Source: Candidatus Azobacteroides sp.
GTDB lineage: Bacteria; Bacteroidota; Bacteroidia; Bacteroidales; Azobacteroidaceae
Length of the DNA stretch: 46,783 nt
Direction: 5' to 3'
Assembly (NCBI GenBank): GCA_009778655.1
Contig: WRFZ01000172.1
Coordinates: forward strand, 1 to 46,783
Positions within the stretch are counted from its first letter, which is position 1. Every line of letters starts with the position of its first letter. The notes under the pieces are model-generated. The model saw only the letters and a list, made by a program, of their open reading frames with translations. It made no database searches and was not told where the DNA came from. The position numbers and the translations under genes were made by a program. Below, piece by piece: positions 3,842 through 40,999 of the stretch.

Positions 3842-5218
3842 TTATAGATTGTACCTTCCCGTTGCATTCTTGTATTCCGCCAAGTTCACAAAATATTCGG
3901 TGACCGCTTCGGCATATTGGTCGCGGGATTGTTGCAAAAGATTTTGAGCTTCGAGCAGGTCGGAAAGAATTATTATACCGGCGTTGTAGTTATCGCGACT
4001 TATTTTCAAGTTCTCTTCGGCCGACAAAATGGATTTTTTCGCCACCAAAACCTGCTGATATGCCTCGTTTACTCCGTCCTGCAAGTTTTGCATTTGTATC
4101 CAAAGCAGTTCGGCGTTATCGCTTTTGGTGTTTTCGGCTTGTTGCAATTCGAGTTTTTTTCGTTTGATGGCATGAGAGCCGCCCCACCAGTCCGAAATCG
4201 GAACGGAAACGTTGGCAAACAGCATTCCGAAATTATTATTCATCCCGTCTTTTTTGTTCATATCGAAATTCAGATACTCGTAACCTGCACCAATTGCAAC
4301 TGTCGGCAAGTTTTTACCCACTTCTATATTCCGTTGTAAACGTGCAACTTCAACCGATTTTTCCAAAAGTTTGTATTCGGGACGGTTTTGTAACGTGGCG
4401 TTGTCGTATCCGTATAAATTCGGCGTTATTTCTTCAATTTCAGGTTGTTGTATATCAAAGCCGTCGGAAGGAACGCCGATTTTCTGTCCCAAAGTCATTT
4501 TCAGCATCATCATTCCGTTTTCGAGTTTGAGTTTACTGCTCTCCAGCTTGTTCTGTTCGAGTTCCACACGCAAAATATCATTGCTTGTAGTCAATCCTGC
4601 CGCAACTGCCGTTTTCACATCCGACAAAATGCGGAGAAGCATTACTTCCGAATCTTCAATGGTTTTCATCTTTTCCCGCAACGAAACGAGTTGCCAAAAA
4701 TAATGCTCTGTTTCGAGCAATACGTCGTTTTCGGCAATTTGTTTTTGTAATCGGCCGGCTTCTATTCCCGCTTTGGCAAGGCGATTCCCGTTGATAATCT
4801 GTCCGCCCGCAAAAATCGGCTGTGCAGCCATCACCCCCGCAATCATTCCGTTTTTCAGTATTTCGATTTTTTGTTCGATATTAAAAGCGGCAGGGTCCAA
4901 CGGCGCGCCCTGTTGCATCAGCCACCCTATTGTCGGCGTAAGCGCTTCCATTGTCGGCTGCATCATCGCCGACAGATCCATTGACAGCAACGGTTTGTTT
5001 GCCAAGAAACCCATACCGATAGCGTTAACGCTTGGGAAATATTTTGTAAATGCCTCTTTTTTCTGTTGTTCCGCCTTTTCGACCGACAATTCGGCATTTT
5101 TTATCTGCCGGTTGTTTTTTAATGCCAACGCTTTGCATTGTTCCAATGTCAGCATATTTTGCGAGAATACCGAATTAATCGTAAAACAAAGTATTATAAT
5201 AATTCCGATTTTTTTCAT
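3842..5218 (-). CDS. TolC-family outer-membrane efflux protein
   Basis: This 458-residue protein has a signal peptide (MKKIGIIIILCFTINSVFSQ) followed by two TolC repeats. Each opens with the family pattern seen here as LTLEQCKALALKNNRQIKNAELSVEKAEQQ (first repeat, about residues 23-55) and ends in a long coiled coil (QNLLQQSRDQYAEAVTEYF near the C-terminus). The protein would form the trimeric exit duct of the efflux pump encoded by the two genes upstream. It is the last gene of the operon, 23 nt after the RND gene. It converges on the HU/SPOR gene with only 30 nt between stop codons, and no clear terminator is visible there. Confidence 0.92.
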   Translation of the reverse strand: MKKIGIIIILCFTINSVFSQNMLTLEQCKALALKNNRQIKNAELSVEKAEQQKKEAFTKYFPSVNAIGMGFLANKPLLSMDLSAMMQPTMEALTPTIGWLMQQGAPLDPAAFNIEQKIEILKNGMIAGVMAAQPIFAGGQIINGNRLAKAGIEAGRLQKQIAENDVLLETEHYFWQLVSLREKMKTIEDSEVMLLRILSDVKTAVAAGLTTSNDILRVELEQNKLESSKLKLENGMMMLKMTLGQKIGVPSDGFDIQQPEIEEITPNLYGYDNATLQNRPEYKLLEKSVEVARLQRNIEVGKNLPTVAIGAGYEYLNFDMNKKDGMNNNFGMLFANVSVPISDWWGGSHAIKRKKLELQQAENTKSDNAELLWIQMQNLQDGVNEAYQQVLVAKKSILSAEENLKISRDNYNAGIIILSDLLEAQNLLQQSRDQYAEAVTEYFVNLAEYKNATGRYNL

Positions 5219-14361: not shown

Positions 14362-16110
14362 TTATATCCCCAACGACCGGCGGACTTCTCCGATTTTCAC
14401 TTCGGCAGCCGCTTCGGCAGTCGCTAACTCTTCATGTGAAGCCACTTTACTGTGAATTTCAATATAAAATTTAATTTTAGGCTCGGTTCCGGAAGGACGA
14501 ATCGAGACCTTTGTTTGATCTTCGGTGAAATATTGCAGCACATTGGAAGTTGTCGGCATATCAAGCGAAACGGACTCATTGTCAAGTAAATCTTTCCCGA
14601 TCAATTTGACAAAGTCTTTAATGAAAATCACTTTCGAACCGGCAATTTCGCGCATCGGTTTTTCGCGGAAATTTTTCATCATGGCTTCGATTTCTTCCGC
14701 ACCCGATTTTCCTTTTCTGACCACCGAGATGCCTTTTTCTTTTGAAAATCCGTATTCCACGTAAATATCCTGCAACAACCGGTAAAGGGTTTTGCCGTTG
14801 TCGGCTGCCCATGCCGCAATTTCGGCCAAGAGCATACAAGCGGAAACCGCATCTTTATCGCGAACAAAATCTTCCGCCAAGAAACCGTAACTTTCTTCTC
14901 CGCCTCCTATATAGATTTTCTTTCCTTCGTTTTTACGCATCACATCGGCAATCCATTTGAATCCGGTGTAACAATCGTACATTTTGATACCGTTCTTTTT
15001 GGCTATACTTTCAACCGACTCGGTCGAAACAATCGTTTTCACTACGTATTCTTTTCCGGTTAATTTACCGGTTTCCCTCCAACGGGTAATTAAATAATAG
15101 ATGAAAATCAACAGGGTTTGATTCCCGTTCAGTAAGACAAATTCGCCGGCTTCATTGCGAACGGCAGCCCCTACCCTATCGGCATCGGGATCGGATGCCA
15201 TCACCAAGTCGGCGCCGGTTTCAATCGCTTTTTCGACAGCCATTTTCAAAGCAGCCGGTTCTTCGGGATTCGGTGAAACTACAGTCGGAAAATCGCCGCT
15301 GACGACATCTTGTTCGGGAACATGGATAATATTCGTGAAACCCATTGCTTTCAAAGCAGCCGGTATTAATGTTCCGCCGGTACCGTGTAACGGGGTGTAA
15401 ACAATCTTTATTGTTTTTTGCCGCTCAATGGCTTCGGGAGAAAGAGAAATCGTCAATAAATCCCGGATGAACCGCTTATCAATGGTTTCATCCAAGATTT
15501 GAATCAAGGCCGGATTTCCTTTGAAATTAATTTCTTTGATTGAAGTTATCGCATTAACTTCGGCAATAATGTTATGATCGTGGGGTGAAATCACTTGAGC
15601 GCCGTCGTTCCAATAGGCTTTATATCCGTTATATTCTTTCGGATTATGAGAAGCGGTTATGATTATCCCGCTTTGGCATCCTAATGTACGAATGGCGTAA
15701 CTGACTTCCGGCGTCGGACGCAAATCGGGAAATAAATAGGCTTTGATTCCGTTGGCGGAAAAAATATCGGCGGAAATTTCCGCAAACCGACGGCTGTTGT
15801 TCCGACAATCGTGACCGATGACCACCTTGATTTCCGGTAAATCGGCAAATTCTTTTTTCAAATAATTGGCTAATCCTTGAGTTGCAGCGCCGACCGTGTA
15901 TTGATTCATCCGGTTTGAGCCTACGCCCATAATGCCTCGAAGCCCGCCGGTTCCAAATTCCAAATCCCGGTAAAAAGCATCAATCAAATCGGCCGGATCT
16001 TCTTTGTCTAATAATTCTTGCACACTTTTGCGAGTCGCCTCGTCATATTCCCGCGATAACCAAGCTTTGGCTTTCGCTTGTACTTGTTCTAACAATTTTT
16101 CTTCTTCCAT
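14362..16110 (-). CDS. Phosphoglucomutase/phosphomannomutase (alpha-D-phosphohexomutase)
   Basis: This 582-residue enzyme has all four signature loops of the superfamily: the phosphoserine loop TASHNPKEYNG with Ser154, the metal-binding loop DPDADR (307-312), the sugar-binding loop GGEESYGF (about 405-412), and the phosphate-binding loop RPSGTEPK near residue 545. It interconverts hexose 1- and 6-phosphates. The long form of about 580 residues is closer to PgcA/PGM2-like phosphoglucomutases than to GlmM. It starts 4 nt after the C69 peptidase gene. Confidence 0.94.
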   Translation of the reverse strand: MEEEKLLEQVQAKAKAWLSREYDEATRKSVQELLDKEDPADLIDAFYRDLEFGTGGLRGIMGVGSNRMNQYTVGAATQGLANYLKKEFADLPEIKVVIGHDCRNNSRRFAEISADIFSANGIKAYLFPDLRPTPEVSYAIRTLGCQSGIIITASHNPKEYNGYKAYWNDGAQVISPHDHNIIAEVNAITSIKEINFKGNPALIQILDETIDKRFIRDLLTISLSPEAIERQKTIKIVYTPLHGTGGTLIPAALKAMGFTNIIHVPEQDVVSGDFPTVVSPNPEEPAALKMAVEKAIETGADLVMASDPDADRVGAAVRNEAGEFVLLNGNQTLLIFIYYLITRWRETGKLTGKEYVVKTIVSTESVESIAKKNGIKMYDCYTGFKWIADVMRKNEGKKIYIGGGEESYGFLAEDFVRDKDAVSACMLLAEIAAWAADNGKTLYRLLQDIYVEYGFSKEKGISVVRKGKSGAEEIEAMMKNFREKPMREIAGSKVIFIKDFVKLIGKDLLDNESVSLDMPTTSNVLQYFTEDQTKVSIRPSGTEPKIKFYIEIHSKVASHEELATAEAAAEVKIGEVRRSLGI

Positions 16111-16114
16111 AATT

Positions 16115-17755
16115 CTATTGCAGTGTTTTTTCTTTTAACCATTCTCCTTTTTCTTCTACGATCGTTCGTAAATATTTATCATCAAATTTGGGGCGATTCG
16201 GATACTGCGAACCTCCGTATTCATTATGAATAAATTCTCCGTCTTTTTCTTTTTTAACGACTCCGTCCATATATTTGACAATCATGTATTCGCCCAATGA
16301 TTTCCATTCATCCGTCGCTTTTTGGGCAACCCCTATGCTGTAATCCGTCAAGAAGGCAACGGCCTGTTCTTTGTCTGTTGAAAGCAATTCTTTCGCTTTT
16401 TGTTCGACCGATTGCTGCGAAGTTAAATAACCGTCTTCCAACCGGTCCTGCAAAGTTTTCGCATCCGGGAGCATCTGATTGTAGCGGGCATAAGCCATAT
16501 TGGCAACCCAATTGTGAATCCAGAAAGCCGAAGTCCATGAAAAATGCGTAAAATCACCGTTCCCGACGCGATAACATTCCGGCGTTTGAGTCATGCAGGA
16601 ATACATCGGCGTATAAACGGTAAATCGCGCATCGTCAACGCCAAACCAGAAAACGCCGCCTATTTCATCGGGTAAATAATTCCGCATTTGCCCTACAAAA
16701 GTAAATCCCGTTTGTTGCGTCGAAGTCGGACGTTCAAAAGCATATTCGACACTGTCCACTTTCCACGATAGCGGATGAAAACGATAAGGAGACCCGAAAG
16801 GTCCTGCGCCTATATCCAAAGTCGGATCGAAAGGCGTTCCTTCGTAATGATCGCGCATACTTGCCATCATATCTTTTACGCTTAGTTTTCGGTTGGGTTT
16901 CACATACAACGGTATAGGTTCCGGATTTTCACCCATGATATAAGGAAGCCATTGTCCGGCATTGTCGGTATATTGGTTGAAAAAGCTCCAAACGCGAGCT
17001 TCGCAAAATCGCAATCCACTCCAATCCAACGGATTATAAGCATCGGCAAAACTAAATTCATTATCTTTCCCGTTGAAATATCCTTTGGAACGAGCAAAAG
17101 AAATGACGTCCTTAGAATACAAGCAATTTTCTTTGTCATTTAGCGGGAATCGGTGGATTCGCGATTGATTGGCATGTGCAGCGATGCAATCGTCCGGAAT
17201 ACGAACGGCTACCCACACGGCGCCTTTATTTCCAACTCCTTTTCCAATCATTTCGAGTATCCAGACTTCGTTTTTATCCACAACCGAAAACGATTCGCCG
17301 CTGCTGCAATAACCGTAAGTCGCCACCAAATCGGTCATGAGTTGAATGGCTTCCCGCGCGGATTTCGATCGTTGCAAGGCTATATAAATGAGGCTTCCGT
17401 AATCCATTATCCCGGTCGAATCAATCAATTCGTTGCGACCGCCGTAAGTCGTTTCTCCAATGCAGAGTTGATGCTCATTCATGTTACCGATCACATTGTA
17501 TGTTTGGCTCGCCTGCGGAATTTTTCCCAAATACTTGCCGGAATCCCATTCTCGAACATCCATCCAAGTATTCGCCGGATAAGTCGCTGCCGGCCAGTGA
17601 TACAACTCGCCGTACAAGGAATACGAATCGGCCGAATAGGTAACCATCGTAGAACCGTCCACAGATGCGGCTTTACCGACTAAAAGATTGGTACAAGCCC
17701 AAGAAGAAATGATTGTAAAAATCATTCCCGTTAGTATCAATATTCTTTTTTTCAT
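16115..17755 (-). CDS. C69-family dipeptidase (PepD-like Ntn hydrolase)
   Basis: This 546-residue protein has a signal peptide followed immediately by the N-terminal nucleophile Cys21 in WACTNLLVGKAASVDGSTM, the family C69 hallmark. Cleavage after Ala20 would both export the protein and expose the catalytic Cys. The long C-terminal part matches secreted C69 enzymes of Bacteroidota. It should finish the digestion of dipeptides generated by DPP7, encoded three genes downstream. It is first in a six-gene minus-strand run ending with dxr; a promoter is visible at 17779-17807. Confidence 0.9.
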   Translation of the reverse strand: MKKRILILTGMIFTIISSWACTNLLVGKAASVDGSTMVTYSADSYSLYGELYHWPAATYPANTWMDVREWDSGKYLGKIPQASQTYNVIGNMNEHQLCIGETTYGGRNELIDSTGIMDYGSLIYIALQRSKSAREAIQLMTDLVATYGYCSSGESFSVVDKNEVWILEMIGKGVGNKGAVWVAVRIPDDCIAAHANQSRIHRFPLNDKENCLYSKDVISFARSKGYFNGKDNEFSFADAYNPLDWSGLRFCEARVWSFFNQYTDNAGQWLPYIMGENPEPIPLYVKPNRKLSVKDMMASMRDHYEGTPFDPTLDIGAGPFGSPYRFHPLSWKVDSVEYAFERPTSTQQTGFTFVGQMRNYLPDEIGGVFWFGVDDARFTVYTPMYSCMTQTPECYRVGNGDFTHFSWTSAFWIHNWVANMAYARYNQMLPDAKTLQDRLEDGYLTSQQSVEQKAKELLSTDKEQAVAFLTDYSIGVAQKATDEWKSLGEYMIVKYMDGVVKKEKDGEFIHNEYGGSQYPNRPKFDDKYLRTIVEEKGEWLKEKTLQ

Positions 17756-17778
17756 GTATTATATTATTTATCCGAATG

Positions 17779-17807
17779 CAAATTTACAAAAAAAAGACAC
17801 ATGACAA
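17779..17807 (-). promoter_or_regulatory. Promoter of the peptidase-dxr operon
   Basis: TAAATTTG (17779-17786) matches TAnnTTTG, with TTG (17805-17807) 18 nt upstream. It lies about 23 nt before the C69 start codon. Confidence 0.7.
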
Positions 17808-17855
17808 AAGATAAAACAAAACTCAGATTCATATTCACCGAATAAAATTATAAAA

Positions 17856-18407
17856 CTACCGTTTATTAAATAAGAGTTGCAAGCCTTGTCTTTCGTAAGA
17901 TTTGAATTTCCTGTCAGAAGAAATAATCGGAATATTGTCGGAAATAGATTGAGCAATGATCAAGTGATCGTTTGGATCTTTGTGATCAGCAACAGGTATA
18001 AGTTCCGCATAAGCAGATAGATTACTCCTTTGTACAGAAATTATCTTAATTCCTAAATCATCAACCGAATCAAATATTTCCTTATAGGATTTGTATTTTA
18101 AATGTTTGAGTTTTTCTTCTTTATACAAAAGTATTAACTCTTTTAAAACGAAAGTACTTATATAAAAAGTATTAGAATAATCTTCCAACACGTCTAAAAT
18201 TCGAGCACAAAACTCATCTTTATCATTACTCAAAATAAAAATAATGATGTTCGATCTAAGTAATATCGTAGAAGCGGCTTGGCGCAGTGGCGGGCTCACT
18301 GAGGCTCGTGGGGGAGACAAAACTTCCAAAATCGCACTGCCATTTCTGCGGGATACACCCGCCATTGTGCCAAACCGCCCGTTATCTGTAGTGCATTTTC
18401 TCATCAT
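17856..18407 (-). pseudogene. PIN-domain (VapC-like) toxin with replaced N-terminus
   Basis: Residues from about 48 to 183 match a PIN-domain ribonuclease, with the acidic residues E90, D147 (in DPNDHLIIAQ) and D165 (ISSDRKF). The first catalytic Asp, normally in a pattern like LLDTNIIIF, is missing: the sequence reads LLRSNIIIF (residues 49-57). The first 47 residues come from a GC-rich segment (about 18268-18407) and do not resemble a PIN start (Arg-, Pro- and Ser-rich). No antitoxin gene lies upstream, where the AbiF gene ends 11 nt away. The native start codon, the first active-site residue and the antitoxin all appear lost. An alternative is a translated but inactive fusion. Confidence 0.65.
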
Positions 18408-18410
18408 TTC
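18268..18410. other. GC-rich inserted segment with hairpins
   Basis: This stretch of about 140 bp is clearly richer in G+C than the AT-rich DNA on both sides. It contains the hairpin GCGGG/CCCGC around GATACA and a CTCACTGAG near-palindrome. It begins within codons of the PIN gene and ends just before the AbiF stop. It looks like a transferred or repeat-type sequence that overwrote the PIN gene's 5' end. Its source was not identified. Confidence 0.5.
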
Positions 18411-18418
18411 TCTTTCCC

Positions 18419-19348
18419 TTATTTTTGTCCTTTATTATCAGTCAAGTTTATTTTCCAAAGTGGCTCATTTTCCCAATCGGCAGGAAATCCCATTGCCCGA
18501 ATATCAACAGTTGGGTATTCCGACAATAAAGTTTTTAGTTTTTGTGTAAATCGGTTGTTGGGCGAAACAGTAAAAAGTAAGTATTTGATGATGCAAATGC
18601 GGAAGTAAACTCGCTTCATATCGGTATTGTCCGAATTTATCCAAGCGAATTTAGGGTTATTGAGTTTGTGCGAGGTAAAAGGAATTTCTCTATTCCACAA
18701 TCGGGCGTGGTGTCCGCAAATATTACGCAAATTAACTAACAACACAGTCCAAGAGGAAAAAACCGGCAACGGCAAGCCAAATTGATGTGCAACTTTTTTC
18801 AAAAGCGATTTATTCGCAAGATTATTGCACAGATTTATCAAAACTCCTAACGGAATTATTTCTGTAATCATCCAAACAGGCGGATACGGATTTGAATATT
18901 TGGATTGAAAATGCGCAATAAAATCTTCTTTATTTTTGGCTGTTTCTGTTTGTATTAGCGATAATGTTTTCGCAAAAATGGCAGGACTGCGAAAATATTG
19001 TGGATTAGTCGCCCAAAAAACATCTTTCAGTTCATCGCTAATCAAATTATTCATTGCACTGCGAATGGCGACTTCGATTTTTTCAATTTCATTGAAAATC
19101 AACATCCGTAATTTTCTGTCGAAACGGTACATATCCATTGCCTTGTCAAAAGTTGCACCATTTTTGTACAAATGTTCTGTTTTTGGCTCTTTTAGCAGCG
19201 GATAGAAATAAGCACTCAAACGAAAATAACCGATGTTTGTCAAATAACTGATTGCTTTTTGTTCGTTGGAAATTGTTAAACCTCTTTGTTTTAACAATGG
19301 CACTAAATCTTTCGGAAGTGTGCAAGTCTTGGAATAATTCTCTTTCAT
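18419..19348 (-). CDS. Abi_2 family (AbiF/AbiD) abortive-infection HEPN protein
   Basis: This 309-residue protein matches the Abi_2 family. The N-terminal block (TLPKDLVPLLKQRGL ... YLTNIGYFRLSAYFYPL) and IEKIEVAIRSAMNN are characteristic. The region near residues 205-221 (NLRNICGHHARLWNRE) contains R208-N-x3-H213, the RNxxxH motif of HEPN ribonucleases. Lactococcal AbiF and AbiD block phage growth, and the family is considered related to the HEPN lineage that includes Cas13. Function here is inferred: RNA cleavage on infection, leading to dormancy or death. A promoter-hairpin-U-run unit (19359-19449) lies directly in front and may encode an RNA partner or control readthrough. Confidence 0.88.
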   Translation of the reverse strand: MKENYSKTCTLPKDLVPLLKQRGLTISNEQKAISYLTNIGYFRLSAYFYPLLKEPKTEHLYKNGATFDKAMDMYRFDRKLRMLIFNEIEKIEVAIRSAMNNLISDELKDVFWATNPQYFRSPAIFAKTLSLIQTETAKNKEDFIAHFQSKYSNPYPPVWMITEIIPLGVLINLCNNLANKSLLKKVAHQFGLPLPVFSSWTVLLVNLRNICGHHARLWNREIPFTSHKLNNPKFAWINSDNTDMKRVYFRICIIKYLLFTVSPNNRFTQKLKTLLSEYPTVDIRAMGFPADWENEPLWKINLTDNKGQK

Positions 19349-19358
19349 AAGTGTATAT

Positions 19359-19412
19359 AAAAAAACGACTCGCCTAATTTAAGCATTGTAAAGAGGCTCG
19401 GCGAGTACTGTT
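19359..19412 (-). ncRNA. Candidate small structured RNA with terminator-like end, upstream of AbiF
   Basis: On the minus strand, transcription from the promoter at 19418-19449 would start near 19412. The RNA has a perfect 7-bp stem (ACTCGCC, complement of 19400-19406, with GGCGAGT, complement of 19368-19374) enclosing a 25-nt loop. It runs into CG followed by seven T's (19359-19365). That gives a roughly 54-nt RNA ending like an intrinsic terminator, 10 nt before the AbiF ATG at 19348. It could be a free RNA, an attenuator, or both. Confidence 0.55.
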
Positions 19413-19417
19413 GGCGA

Positions 19418-19449
19418 CAAAAGTACAACAATATTTTTAATCCACCAAA
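19418..19449 (-). promoter_or_regulatory. Promoter of the AbiF-associated RNA
   Basis: TACTTTTG (19418-19425) matches TAnnTTTG, with TTTG (19446-19449) upstream (20-nt spacing). It lies only about 20 nt downstream of the stop codon of the preceding gene, so the RNA-AbiF unit can be transcribed separately from the SPFH operon. Confidence 0.65.
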
Positions 19450-19469
19450 CGAAAAAACAAAAAATCACA

Positions 19470-20066
19470 TTAAACGCTCAAACATTCAGGCATTTCAACT
19501 TGCAATATTTCAGAAAACTGTGTAATGTCCGCATTTGGAAGTCCTGTTTCGATTGCAGTTTCTAACTCATTTTTCCAATTTGGTGTAATATTAAGATATT
19601 TTCGTTCAAAATAATCGTTCTTAATATAAGCCAAAAAGTAGTGATAAATTCCTCGCGGCTCTATCATAATAGCTGCATTTAGATATTCCAAAATTTTGTC
19701 GATGTCGGCACGAGGTGCAACAAATGCTTTTTTCCCTTTCAGTAAATTTATGGCTGCATAAAAGAATGTTTCCGAATTATCGAAATTATCTTCTATTGCT
19801 TTTGCGAAAGGAACGGCTGCGTTGTCATACATTTTTAGTTTGAAATAGCACATTGCAAGCGACATATGTAAGTCTTTGCTGTCGGGATTTGTCGCTAATT
19901 CTTTGCGGTAAGCATTGGCGTATTTGTTCACTTCGAGTGTGGACATTGACGCAATTGCCGTTATCGAAGCGATAACAATCGGGCGAGTGCAAAATTCACA
20001 GATTTTATGTTTGGTTGAAACAGGTGCACCACAACCCGGGCAGTTCAAATTGATTACTTTTTCCAT
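19470..20066 (-). CDS. Zinc-ribbon and TPR-like protein
   Basis: This 198-residue protein has an N-terminal zinc ribbon with C9-x2-C12 and C23-x2-C26 (NCPGCGAPV ... ICEFC). A helical region follows with TPR-like repeats (KDLHMSLAMCYFKLKMYDNAAVPFAKAIED and similar, about residues 60-130). There is no signal peptide or membrane segment. The function is unknown; the architecture suggests an adaptor for the membrane and SPFH proteins encoded just upstream, with which it forms an operon (4-nt gap). Confidence 0.75.
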   Translation of the reverse strand: MEKVINLNCPGCGAPVSTKHKICEFCTRPIVIASITAIASMSTLEVNKYANAYRKELATNPDSKDLHMSLAMCYFKLKMYDNAAVPFAKAIEDNFDNSETFFYAAINLLKGKKAFVAPRADIDKILEYLNAAIMIEPRGIYHYFLAYIKNDYFERKYLNITPNWKNELETAIETGLPNADITQFSEILQVEMPECLSV

Positions 20067-20070
20067 TATT

Positions 20071-20826
20071 TTATCTTCGTGTTAAATTTTTCAACATATC
20101 TATTTCCGCAATAGCGTTATCTACAAAGCGTTGCATTTTCTTTTGCGCTTCTACCAATGTATCATCTGTTGCCGATTCAGTTTCTTCAATAATATCCTCA
20201 CATTTGTTGAACAACGAAGTTAATTGAGAAACTGCCGTATCGTTATTCAAAATATTGGGAGTTAGAAAACTTATTTTTCCTTTCAATCGGTCGAGTGTCG
20301 TGCGATTATTGGAATCTGTTTCGTATTTCAATCCTTTTTCTGTGCAAAGTTTTTCGTAACGATTAGCGAGCAAGTTAATTTTCTGCGTGTAGAAGTTCAA
20401 TGTATGCGTATCGTCTTTTAATTTTTCTACCGTTTCCTTATAATTGCTATCGGTTTGGGCGGTCAATACGGAAATAATTATCCATAGTAATGTAAGCACC
20501 ATTAACGCGGCAACATAAAATTTTATCGGCAAAAAGTGTGAAAGTATCAGCGAATAAGCCAACATACAAACAAACCCGATTACAACATAATAAATAGCGT
20601 AAACGCCAAATACAGCAAGAAAAGGACTTGAAAATTCTTTTACTTTGGCGTACAACAAATTGAGATACCCGAAAAATACGGCTTCGAGAAATATTGTATA
20701 TCCAAGATTTAGATAAAACAACGCTGTTGTTTCATGTGGCTTAAACATAAAAAACAGTGTAATTGTTATCGCAATTACTACTATCGGCAACACATAGTTT
20801 GCAATGAGATTGATTTTCTTTGACAT
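20071..20826 (-). CDS. Multi-pass membrane protein with C-terminal coiled coil
   Basis: This 251-residue protein of unknown family has four predicted transmembrane helices: about 8-28, 36-58, 68-92 and 97-120. A cytoplasmic or periplasmic helical tail follows (about 125-250) with heptad-like stretches (YTQKINLLANRYEKL, AQKKMQRFVDNAIAEI). It lies 19 nt after the SPFH gene and 4 nt before the zinc-ribbon/TPR gene, so the three products probably form one membrane-associated assembly. No catalytic motif was seen. Confidence 0.7.
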   Translation of the reverse strand: MSKKINLIANYVLPIVVIAITITLFFMFKPHETTALFYLNLGYTIFLEAVFFGYLNLLYAKVKEFSSPFLAVFGVYAIYYVVIGFVCMLAYSLILSHFLPIKFYVAALMVLTLLWIIISVLTAQTDSNYKETVEKLKDDTHTLNFYTQKINLLANRYEKLCTEKGLKYETDSNNRTTLDRLKGKISFLTPNILNNDTAVSQLTSLFNKCEDIIEETESATDDTLVEAQKKMQRFVDNAIAEIDMLKNLTRR

Positions 20827-20845
20827 AATATTCTATTGTTAAAAG

Positions 20846-22024
20846 TTAAACAATCGGCGGTGGTGGCGGTGGAGTTGCACCGAAAAATCCTTGTAATTCG
20901 GGGCAATCGCTTGTTTTTGCCCATTGTGCCATTCCATTTTTCCAAACCAATGTATCGCGAGTTATTTGTCCGCTTTGAATGTATTGACCAAGTGTGTTAG
21001 TATCGTATTGATACTGCTGATTATTTACCAACACAAACCAAACCGTCGCAGTTGGTGGCGGTGGCGGAGTTGCTTGTTGCTGTTGTTGCATAACGCCTGC
21101 CATATTACCCATTTGTTGACCAAATGCTCCGCCTACGCCAAAGCCCATTCCAAGTCCCATTCCCGCACCCATCATTTGACCTGCACTGCCCTCGTTGCCT
21201 GCTGCTGTTTCCATTACATCAAGTTGTCGTTCTTGCTGATAAGTGTAACCTTCCATTCGGCGTTTTGCGGCTTCCGATTGAGAATCAAGAATTTTCTGAA
21301 CATTCGGGTCTGCTTTATCGAAATTCAAAGAAGCAATATTGAAACTTGCTATGCGAACTCCGTATTGTGCAAATTCTTCGTTGATAGCATCACGCACATA
21401 ATTTGCGACTTCGTCAATGTACGCATTAATTTTTACTACCGTAACTTCTTTTTGTACAACAAATTTGCTGATTGAGGCAGTAAGTTTTTGCACGATTAAA
21501 GATTTGAATTGCTCAATAATGTCATCGGTTGTAAAAAGGTGCAAAGTTCCAACCATTTGTTGTAAAAATGCCGAAGAATCTGTTACTTGCACACCAAACT
21601 CGCCAAACGAGCGAACAGGAATAGAAACGCCGTAAAGTGGGTCTAATAAATCAATCGGCTGCGGTGTGCCGAATTTTAGATTACGGCGAATTGTTTTACT
21701 GACATACCATACTTCGGCTGTAAATGGACTTCGTCCGCCGAAAGGAATGTTTATTAATTTTTGAAGAACAGGAATATTATTTGCCGAAAGCGTATGCGTA
21801 CCTGCACCGAAAATATCGGCAATCGCACCGCCTTTCACAAAAACTGCTTCCTGTGTTTGATTTACAATCAACTGCGCTCCGATTGACAAATTTTCGTATG
21901 GAAATTTCCAAACGAGTTCATCTTCTTCGCCGTTGTATTTTATTCGGTCTATAAAACCTTTTCTTTCTTCGCCTTGTCCGTCATACGTTGTGCCGTCTGT
22001 GCGGTTTTTATTAAATAGTCCCAT
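20846..22024 (-). CDS. SPFH-domain protein with C-terminal GYF_2 domain (YdjI-like)
   Basis: In this 392-residue protein, residues about 45-250 form an SPFH/band-7 domain of the YdjI (virion core protein-like) branch (VWKFPYENLSIGAQLIVNQTQEAVFVKGG, then YGVRIASFNIASLNF). A Gly/Met-rich linker (about 275-312), a poly-Gln/Pro tract (313-324), a GYF_2 domain (about 327-382, VWFVLVNNQQYQYDTNTL ... DTLVWKNGMAQW) and a Pro-rich tail follow. SPFH proteins make oligomeric membrane microdomains; GYF_2 modules usually bind Pro-rich peptides, and its own tail is a possible ligand. It has no transmembrane helix, so membrane contact may go through the neighbouring four-helix protein. Confidence 0.85.
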   Translation of the reverse strand: MGLFNKNRTDGTTYDGQGEERKGFIDRIKYNGEEDELVWKFPYENLSIGAQLIVNQTQEAVFVKGGAIADIFGAGTHTLSANNIPVLQKLINIPFGGRSPFTAEVWYVSKTIRRNLKFGTPQPIDLLDPLYGVSIPVRSFGEFGVQVTDSSAFLQQMVGTLHLFTTDDIIEQFKSLIVQKLTASISKFVVQKEVTVVKINAYIDEVANYVRDAINEEFAQYGVRIASFNIASLNFDKADPNVQKILDSQSEAAKRRMEGYTYQQERQLDVMETAAGNEGSAGQMMGAGMGLGMGFGVGGAFGQQMGNMAGVMQQQQQATPPPPPTATVWFVLVNNQQYQYDTNTLGQYIQSGQITRDTLVWKNGMAQWAKTSDCPELQGFFGATPPPPPPIV

Positions 22025-22068
22025 TTTTTGTTTTTATTTTAAGGATAAAAATACTGTACAAAGTAAAA

Positions 22069-22106
22069 ATCCAACCAACAAAACAGACTTTTTCTGTCAG
22101 TTGGAT
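22069..22106 (-). terminator. Bidirectional terminator between the 226-residue protein gene and the SPFH gene
   Basis: A 7-bp stem ATCCAAC/GTTGGAT (22069-22075 and 22100-22106) holds an inner CAGA/TCTG hairpin. T-runs follow on both strands (GGATTTTTA on minus, GGATATTTTTTTT on plus). It probably ends the minus-strand gene at 22128, making the SPFH operon a separate unit. Confidence 0.65.
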
Positions 22107-22127
22107 ATTTTTTTGCAATATTCTATC

Positions 22128-22808
22128 TTATGTTGTTTGTTTCTTTTCACGGAGTTTTGCTTTCATTCCTTGAATAACTTTTTCATAAGAATCCCCCCAC
22201 GGTGGTAGTGCGCACATAAATTTATTGCCCGGAACAACTATCGCAAATTGATGTGATTCAAATGTTTCGTTATTTCCCAGAATTTTAATTGTTACGGTTT
22301 CTGTCAATGTGGAAAAGTTTGTGATGTCTTTATAAAAATATTCTTCCGTTCGTATGCTCGTAACACTTTCCGTTAAGTTAAAATTGTCTTGATAAATATA
22401 AATTTGGGTAGAAGAAAAGAAAATCCTCGTAATTTGTATTTTTGATGCTCGATACTTACCATCGTTTCCTTTTTTAAAAAAACCGTCATCATATTTATTT
22501 CCCCAAAAATTAACAGGCTCTACTTCGTTGACTTCGCTTTCATCAATTCCTATTTTGTCCAATGCTTTTTGTCTGCTATTATTTACATTTAAGGCTTTTT
22601 CTACCAAATCATCAAACTCTTGGTCTGAAACAAGTTTGGCTTTATTCAGCCAACCGCCATCTCCTCGAAGTAAAAAATATTTCAAAGCGGTTATTTGCTC
22701 ATCCGTTTTTCCACGAGATAAATTTTCTACTCTCTCCATTCCCGAATCTTTTTTGAATGGTTTTGTAAGGAAAAAGATAATTACAATTGCTATTAAAACA
22801 TATATCAT
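22128..22808 (-). CDS. Membrane-anchored protein of unknown function
   Basis: This 226-residue protein starts with one transmembrane helix (MIYVLIAIVIIFFLTKPF), followed by a soluble part. A helical region (about 25-95) contains RGDGGWLNKAKLVSDQEF, and a predicted beta-rich C-terminal half (about 105-215) has strands IQITRIFFSSTQIYIYQDNF and TVTIKILGNNETFESHQFAIVV that resemble a PH-like sandwich. No family is recognised with confidence. It lies upstream of the SPFH operon on the same strand and shares its low G+C composition; a terminator separates them. Confidence 0.65.
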   Translation of the reverse strand: MIYVLIAIVIIFFLTKPFKKDSGMERVENLSRGKTDEQITALKYFLLRGDGGWLNKAKLVSDQEFDDLVEKALNVNNSRQKALDKIGIDESEVNEVEPVNFWGNKYDDGFFKKGNDGKYRASKIQITRIFFSSTQIYIYQDNFNLTESVTSIRTEEYFYKDITNFSTLTETVTIKILGNNETFESHQFAIVVPGNKFMCALPPWGDSYEKVIQGMKAKLREKKQTT

Positions 22809-22833
22809 AACATTTAAATTTTAACTATTCCTT

Positions 22834-23100
22834 CTACTCGTGTGGCTTTTCGTAGGAAATAATCCGCCCGTTTTTGAGAGTTTCTGCTCTCTCCGCAATA
22901 TGATTTAAGTGTTTTGCGGTTTCACTTCGCTCTTTTTTGGGGAACAGTTGCGAATCTGTTTTATATGTTGTGGCGGTTTTTACCGCTGTCGGATTTTCAA
23001 TTTTTGACAATAAAAATAGCGTGGAAACAACCTGTCTGTTGTTCAGGTTTCCACGCCTATATATCTCCACGCCGTTGTACACGACATTTCACTAACTACT
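22834..23100 (-). other. Structured leader or small ORF upstream of the 226-residue protein gene
   Basis: The stretch holds several strong hairpins on either strand: GCGTGGAAAC/GTTTCCACGC (10 bp, 23019-23028 with 23047-23056), GCGG/CCGC near 22970 and GAGAG/CTCTC near 22880. On the minus strand it is also an open frame of 82 codons (22834-23082). That frame has protein-like content (PKKERSETAKHLNHIAERAE) but only a GTG start just after a TGA and no ATG. I cannot decide between a small gene, a truncated gene and a structured RNA leader. Confidence 0.4.
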
Positions 23101-40878: not shown

Positions 40879-40886
40879 CCCCGAAT

Positions 40887-40964
40887 ATCTTTAGGGGTGC
40901 CTTTACGGGCTGAGATCATACCCTTTGAACTTGAACAGGTTAGTACCTGCGTAGGGACAAAGAT
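40887..40964 (+). promoter_or_regulatory. TPP (thiamine pyrophosphate, THI-element) riboswitch
   Basis: Conserved blocks are in order: GGGGTGCC, GGGCTGAGA, ACCCTTTGAAC, then AGGTTAGTACCT and GCGTAGGGA. P1 is ATCTTT (40887-40892) pairing with AAAGAT (40959-40964). The bulge CTGAGA and the TTTGAAC loop are the ligand-binding signatures. Just downstream, GCCGATCGGC and TTTTCGAAAA form hairpins, and ACCCC followed by T's (about 40992-41003) could pair with the GGGG of the aptamer. The exact expression platform is unclear. Confidence 0.95.
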
Positions 40965-40999
40965 GCCGATCGGCAAAATTTTCGAAAAGAATACCCCTT

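What the first reader, a model, noticed from the sequence alone, without database searches (positions are those of the whole stretch)
18419..19449. AbiF-type HEPN protein with a dedicated small RNA unit directly in front
Seen: on the minus strand a promoter (TTTG, 20 nt, TACTTTTG) is followed by a 7-bp perfect stem with a 25-nt loop and then seven T's, ending 10 nt before the ATG of an Abi_2 protein with an RNxxxH HEPN motif (R208-H213). Known: Abi_2 proteins (AbiF, AbiD) are phage-exclusion factors in the HEPN group, and, as I recall, AbiF-like proteins with a partner non-coding RNA have been proposed as relatives of the Cas13 ancestor. Inference: the RNA of about 54 nt could be an RNA antitoxin or guide-like partner, or an attenuator that controls readthrough into the toxin.
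Basis: partly seen in the sequence, partly recalled or inferred. Interest (0 to 1): 0.82.

Follow-up and report, generated by a model that had tools for sequence, protein, structure and literature searches.

The report
AbiF toxin with its RNA antitoxin
This is an ordinary copy of a known bacterial anti-virus toxin (AbiF) with the small RNA that keeps it silent; following it up showed that many phages carry the same small RNA without the toxin, which looks like a way to disarm the defence.

Summary
On the minus strand a Bacteroidota-type promoter, a 38-nt hairpin and seven T's precede a 309-aa Abi_2/AbiF protein, the T's ending 10 nt before its ATG. The hairpin is a known RNA, Rfam RF03085 'abiF RNA' (43.1 bits, cut-off 37). 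The protein is closely related to PbAbiF, solved with its RNA (PDB 8VZ6; E 1e-91). I read the locus as a type III-like toxin-antitoxin unit: the RNA silences a HEPN ribonuclease, and its hairpin probably also limits read-through. The locus is a new member of a known kind. RNA and promoter are conserved in Bacteroidota relatives (hairpin in 16 of 18 AbiF loci; promoter box 10-12 nt before the hairpin in 25 of 27 rows).

The new part lies outside the window. The RNA's 22-nt core occurs in 103 viral records, and 101 of them have no Abi_2 gene. The orphans covary as a stem, mostly avoid genes and often sit beside tRNA genes (22 of 103 within 60 nt, 1.8 expected). Named carriers include T4-like, T7-like, cyano- and mycobacteriophages. 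My reading: decoy antitoxins. This is untested, and no matching host AbiF was shown.

The parts
19418..19449 (-). Bacteroidota-type promoter (TTTG, 20 nt, TACTTTTG; the type is recalled)
   Evidence: TAnnTTTG lies 10-12 nt before the hairpin in 25 of 27 rows read, a few of them the same locus twice. Transcription itself not shown.
19368..19405 (-). abiF RNA hairpin (RNA antitoxin, AbiFr): closing stem 19406-19400 with 19374-19368, inner helix 19398-19396 with 19384-19382, conserved loop
   Evidence: Rfam RF03085 43.1 bits, cut-off 37; model R1 46.1 bits, E 4e-9, window held out; covariation in the closing stem of 16 relatives.
19359..19365 (-). run of seven T's after the hairpin: likely RNA 3' end / intrinsic terminator
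   Evidence: many relatives have an interrupted run TTTTATTTTA here. Termination inferred.
18419..19348 (-). AbiF (Abi_2) HEPN ribonuclease toxin, 309 aa
   Evidence: Pfam PF07751 170.1 bits; PADLOC AbiD E 3.7e-65; PDB 8VZ6 chain A E 1.1e-91 over residues 6-299.
18710..18727 (-). HEPN catalytic motif R208-N-x-x-x-H213
   Evidence: aligns with R210/H215 of PbAbiF, whose double alanine variant is inactive according to PMC12373285.

Best explanation
A type III-like (RNA-protein) toxin-antitoxin defence unit of the AbiF family. The promoter at 19418-19449 makes a short RNA (about 50-54 nt, predicted) that folds into the abiF hairpin. The RNA binds the AbiF dimer and blocks its HEPN ribonuclease. 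Most transcripts probably stop at the T-run after the hairpin, so RNA is made in excess over toxin mRNA, and read-through supplies a little toxin. When infection or stress lowers the RNA, free AbiF would cut RNA and stop growth. Shown here: the RNA family, protein family, catalytic residues, promoter geometry and conservation. Reported by others for relatives: toxicity, loss of toxicity on R/H mutation, RNA-protein binding, neutralisation in cis and in trans, premature termination. Inferred for this locus: expression, termination at the T-run, the trigger and antiphage activity.
For: RF03085 match. The only Abi_2 match in the draft genome (89.6% complete) lies directly after the only abiF RNA match. 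In all 15 bacterial RF03085 loci over the cut-off that I examined (11, read, L011 by eye; 4, read) an AbiF start lies within about 35 nt, although some of those frames are broken. Promoter-hairpin spacing is nearly fixed. The stem covaries in 16 bacterial RNAs: 94.4% of cells paired against 88.5% shuffled, 4 pairs changed on both sides. Homology to PbAbiF. Literature on relatives: PMC12373285.
Against: No expression data. The folding z-score is only -2.15. In many relatives the T-run is interrupted, so the terminator role may differ between loci. Two of 18 AbiF loci (L015, L031) lack the RNA. Antiphage activity was not shown for the C. difficile relative.
Confidence: 0.9

Rival explanations
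1. The hairpin is only a cis attenuator/terminator of the abiF mRNA and does not act as a separate RNA.
For: Hairpin plus T-run 10 nt before the ATG; premature termination is part of the C. difficile mechanism.
Against: The loop is conserved where a plain terminator would not need it: GCCTCT and AATGCT are the same in all 16 hairpins reached through the protein, while the stem varies; trans neutralisation is reported for RCd22; the same RNA occurs without an Abi_2 gene in phage records.
Confidence: 0.05
2. The RNA guides AbiF to target RNAs, as a Cas13-like forerunner.
For: AbiF is a proposed ancestor of Cas13 (PMC12165695, one passage; PMC12737573, passages).
Against: No spacer-like variable segment in the hairpin: the same loop in 16 relatives; no repeat array at 16000-23000; a review passage states that AbiF lacks RNA-targeting specificity.
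Confidence: 0.02
3. A degenerate, inactive remnant.
For: Some relatives have broken or shortened abiF frames behind an intact RNA (L003, L005, L006, L010).
Against: The window's frame is full length with the catalytic motif, and promoter and RNA are intact.
Confidence: 0.03

Closest known systems
PbAbiF-AbiFr (Prevotellaceae; PDB 8VZ6; Zilberzwige-Tal et al. 2025, not seen, known through PMC12373285 and PMC12737573)
   Same: Closely related protein over residues 6-299, same R/H pair; one AbiFr RNA per monomer as described in the review.
   Different: No difference tested; the RNA sequence of 8VZ6 was not available here.
C. difficile AbiF-RCd22 (PMC12373285)
   Same: abiF RNA directly upstream, Abi_2 HEPN protein, one promoter for both, RNA antitoxin.
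   Different: RCd22 has two abiF motifs plus a separate terminator; here one motif is itself followed by the T-run. RCd22 is prophage-borne; I did not look for a prophage here.
ToxIN and phage PhiTE pseudo-ToxI (Blower 2012, PMC3475682, abstract read)
   Same: RNA-protein toxin-antitoxin; a phage-borne antitoxin mimic is the precedent for reading the orphan abiF RNAs as decoys.
   Different: ToxN is not a HEPN protein and ToxI is a pseudoknot repeat RNA (both recalled).

Membership tests
abiF RNA (Rfam RF03085) | Covariance model score at or above 37 bits | tested here: met
   43.1 bits
abiF RNA (Rfam RF03085) | Closing stem supported by covariation | tested here: met
   16 bacterial relatives, 4 pairs changed on both sides; the 6th pair is unpaired in 7 of 16
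AbiF/AbiD (Abi_2) protein | Pfam PF07751 above 25.6 bits | tested here: met
   170.1 bits; PADLOC AbiD; no NCBIfam match at E up to 0.001
AbiF/AbiD (Abi_2) protein | RNxxxH HEPN catalytic motif | tested here: met
   R208/H213, aligned with R210/H215 of 8VZ6
Type III toxin-antitoxin | RNA antitoxin encoded upstream of the toxin, same strand | tested here: met
Type III toxin-antitoxin | RNA binds and neutralises the toxin protein | not testable with these tools
   reported for relatives only (PMC12373285)
Cas13 / RNA-guided nuclease | Variable guide segment or repeat-spacer array | tested here: not met
   no array at 16000-23000; same loop in 16 relatives
Viral orphan RNAs as members of RF03085 | Score at or above 37 bits | tested here: inconclusive
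   69 of 100 IMG/VR records (36 of 50, 33 of 50) and 11 of 12 named phages reach it; the rest score lower

The most novel reading that the evidence does not exclude
Many unrelated phages carry the abiF RNA antitoxin without the abiF toxin, often in tRNA arrays and in T7-Ah straight after a phage promoter, as an RNA anti-defence decoy: during infection the phage RNA replaces the decaying host antitoxin and keeps AbiF silent. Where the hairpin abuts a tRNA, tRNA-processing enzymes would cut it free.
Probability: 0.6. Interest if true: 0.85.

Novelty: new member of a known kind. Interest (0 to 1): 0.55.

Why it matters
The locus itself adds a well-conserved Bacteroidota example of the system from which Cas13 is thought to descend. 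The follow-up matters more: if the orphan phage RNAs are AbiF decoys, a widespread class of RNA anti-defence elements has been sitting largely unannotated between phage genes and tRNAs, PhiTE's pseudo-ToxI becomes one case of a common strategy, and which phages carry the RNA would predict which hosts have been defended by AbiF. It can be tested with small plasmids.

Tried and rejected
Guide RNA / CRISPR reading: no repeat array nearby. The paper that described the abiF motif (Weinberg 2017, named in PMC12373285) is not held.

Is the viral signal an artefact of a short pattern? The same core written backwards gave 0 hits against 103. Are the viral copies broken AbiF modules? Abi_2 is absent from 101 of 103 whole records, from 10 of 10 in a second pattern set and from 9 of 9 named phage records, 8 of which are titled complete genomes (CGphi29 is titled genomic sequence). 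The IMG/VR records may be fragments.

Results against the decoy reading. (1) Two other AbiFr types were searched in phages: the enterobacterial type had no match, the Acinetobacter type only a 21-nt stretch inside an ndh gene. (2) One canonical hairpin query has no match in E. coli genomes; the second canonical form was not run there. (3) For no named phage did I show an AbiF with the canonical RNA in its own host; the AbiF loci that I read on Acinetobacter, Rhodococcus and Paenarthrobacter plasmids have other loops. (4) 31 of 100 viral records are below the Rfam cut-off (one has no match at all), and some cores have no closing stem (L061, L080, L102). (5) On the measure 'pairs with a change on both sides' the viral alignments do not beat shuffles (239 and 242 of 500 shuffles reach it); the other measures do. 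(6) Weak BLAST rows (for example Rhizobium, Escherichia, Bacillus, Rhodococcus) cover about half the query and were not counted as abiF RNAs.

Choices that favour my reading. Viral loci were picked by the core, so only stem, placement and gene context are independent. A4 and A5 were fitted to the model; slid controls pair 27-52% and 24-53% of cells. A2 misregisters rows with a 2-nt linker, so five of its 21 rows, the window's included, were dropped before the model was built.

Full report
The observation. Window 18419-19449 on the minus strand holds, in order, TTTG-20 nt-TACTTTTG, a hairpin, seven T's and a 309-aa reading frame. The promoter pattern occurs 6 times in the window where shuffles give 1.76, so it is meaningful mainly by position. 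The hairpin matches Rfam RF03085, 'abiF RNA', at 43.1 bits (cut-off 37) over the whole model. The protein is Abi_2 (170 bits), AbiD in PADLOC, and matches the chain of PDB 8VZ6 at E 1.1e-91. According to PMC12373285 (seen: abstract, sections 6, 7, 11, 12, first part of 13, and passages), 8VZ6 is PbAbiF bound to its RNA. R208 and H213 align with PbAbiF R210 and H215, whose double alanine variant is reported inactive there. The draft genome (2.9 Mb, 182 contigs, 89.6% complete) gives one match for the RNA family and one for Abi_2, and they are this pair.

Conservation. Ten of 97 genomes, the window's own included, have RF03085 (11 loci). In all 11 an AbiF N-terminus begins 17-33 nt after the hairpin (L011 read by eye), although some of the frames are short or broken. 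Four more loci over the cut-off, from 392 sampled genomes of the phylum, are also followed by AbiF; the two sub-threshold loci L143 and L144 were not assessed for a gene. Starting from the protein instead, 18 loci were found in records titled Bacteroidia, Bacteroidales, Prevotellaceae, Tannerella and the like. 16 have the hairpin upstream; L015 and L031 do not. The box TAnnTTTG lies 10-12 nt before the hairpin in 25 of 27 rows read, a few of them the same locus twice. A sequence-structure model made from 16 such RNAs, window left out, finds the window at E 4e-9. The stem covaries. On plasmids, 12 further AbiF genes were read upstream. By eye 11 of 12 follow a hairpin, mostly with a T-run; L161 is unclear. 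Of the 8 scanned with Rfam (L155-L162), three Acinetobacter loci score 33-34 bits, below the cut-off, and five have no abiF match. Two plasmid loci with the canonical type (L152 Phocaeicola, L153 Legionella) are followed directly by AbiF.

Mechanism. For the C. difficile relative, PMC12373285 reports toxicity, RNA binding, neutralisation in cis and in trans, and premature termination with some read-through. The window has the same parts in a simpler layout: one motif whose stem is itself followed by the T-run. I take it as a type III-like toxin-antitoxin unit (confidence 0.9). Expression, termination and trigger at this locus are inferred.

Orphan RNAs in phages. The 22-nt core AGCCTCTNNACNATGCTNAAAT occurs in 103 IMG/VR stretches; the same core reversed occurs in none. 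Whole-record searches found an Abi_2 gene in 2 of the 103 records (1 of 50, 1 of 50, 0 of 3). In 100 of the records RF03085 reaches its cut-off in 69 (36 of 50, 33 of 50). The bacterial model R1 finds 87 of 98 orphan loci at E up to 0.01 (the 2 records with Abi_2 were left out and 3 loci not given). Since loci were chosen by the core, the fair test is the stem: among 77 distinct orphan RNAs 95.9% of pair cells are standard pairs against 76.7% shuffled, with 99 two-sided cells against 21, and all six closing pairs show two-sided changes (shuffles reach that last count in 239 of 500). A variant core starting TGC was found in 10 further records, about four groups by flanking sequence. All 10 carry the compensating A (TGC...GCA), and none has Abi_2. 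Orphan cores lie inside a reading frame of 100 aa or more in 19 of 101 cases, against 1433 of 2020 random positions in the same loci.

Placement. 22 of 103 loci, none of them the two with Abi_2, have a tRNA gene on the same strand within 60 nt. 2000 random placements, position and strand both random, gave 1.8 on average and 7 at most. With near copies merged it is 19 of 91 against 1.6. In S-SZBM1 the hairpin ends 4 nt before tRNA-Ala; in S-CREM1 it ends 4 nt before tRNA-Gly and starts 29 nt after tRNA-Asn; in MrMagoo it lies between tRNA-Gly and tRNA-Val; in Lolly9 it ends 4 nt before tRNA-Asn; in Mimi it lies between tRNA-Tyr and tRNA-Lys. In the T7-like phage T7-Ah, 17 sites resemble this promoter, all on the plus strand; one of them would start a transcript about 18 nt before the hairpin (start point recalled from T7), between the connector and scaffold genes. 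The named carriers examined belong to Straboviridae, Kyanoviridae, Autographiviridae, Vilmaviridae and Omegavirus, with CGphi29 and Mimi not placed further. Of 12, 11 reach the Rfam cut-off and Mimi (33.0 bits) does not. Abi_2 is absent from 9 named records; Acj61, LittleE and Lolly9 were covered as IMG/VR records of the same length (G182, G173, G176). Phages in which tblastn finds an AbiF protein (60 records; 39 Streptococcus, 10 unnamed, 4 Clostridioides, 3 Lactococcus and others) share no named genus with the RNA carriers; unnamed 'Bacteriophage' records occur in both lists. Two loci carry three abiF-like RNAs in tandem, one over the cut-off and two just below (L101, L109).

Reading of the orphans. 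Phage PhiTE carries a pseudo-ToxI that can silence ToxIN (PMC3475682, abstract), and phage tRNAs have been proposed as a counter to tRNA-cutting defences (PMC10264068, abstract). By analogy the orphan abiF RNAs would replace the host antitoxin during infection. This absence rests on the searches, several with capped lists, in an open-access library in which I did not find the Cell 2025 AbiF paper. Against the reading: no host-phage match was shown, two other AbiFr types have no convincing phage copies, and the RNA might bind something other than AbiF.

Verdict. The window's finding is correct and belongs to a described family. The orphan RNAs are the part that deserves work.

Noticed in passing
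103 IMG/VR loci L032-L134; 10 further loci L168-L177; named phages L135-L138, L145-L151, L154: abiF RNAs without an Abi_2 gene in nearly all records, often next to tRNA genes (see full report).
   Followed up: partly
L101 and L109 (records G166, G174), about 590-711 and 4412-4533: Three abiF-like RNAs in tandem (one over the Rfam cut-off, two just below) in loci with 23 tRNA genes, reminiscent of the two motifs of RCd22.
   Followed up: no
L113, L169, L173, L174, L176: The abiF core seems to be embedded in a larger conserved phage RNA (similar flanks of about 30 nt on both sides).
   Followed up: no
L003, L005, L006, L010: Intact abiF RNA in front of a broken or shortened abiF frame in relatives; drafts, so assembly error is possible.
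   Followed up: no
17856-18407 (-): PIN-domain protein right after abiF; where PIN toxins usually carry the first acidic motif (recalled) it reads LLRSN, and about 45 N-terminal residues are encoded by a palindromic stretch.
   Followed up: partly
18270-18400: Long GC-rich imperfect palindrome after abiF (z -2.07); one match in the genome.
   Followed up: partly
L155, L156, L157, L159: Acinetobacter plasmid abiF genes lie next to restriction genes (specificity subunit and helicase, or type I subunit R).
   Followed up: no
40883-40975 (+): TPP riboswitch, 69.9 bits.
   Followed up: no
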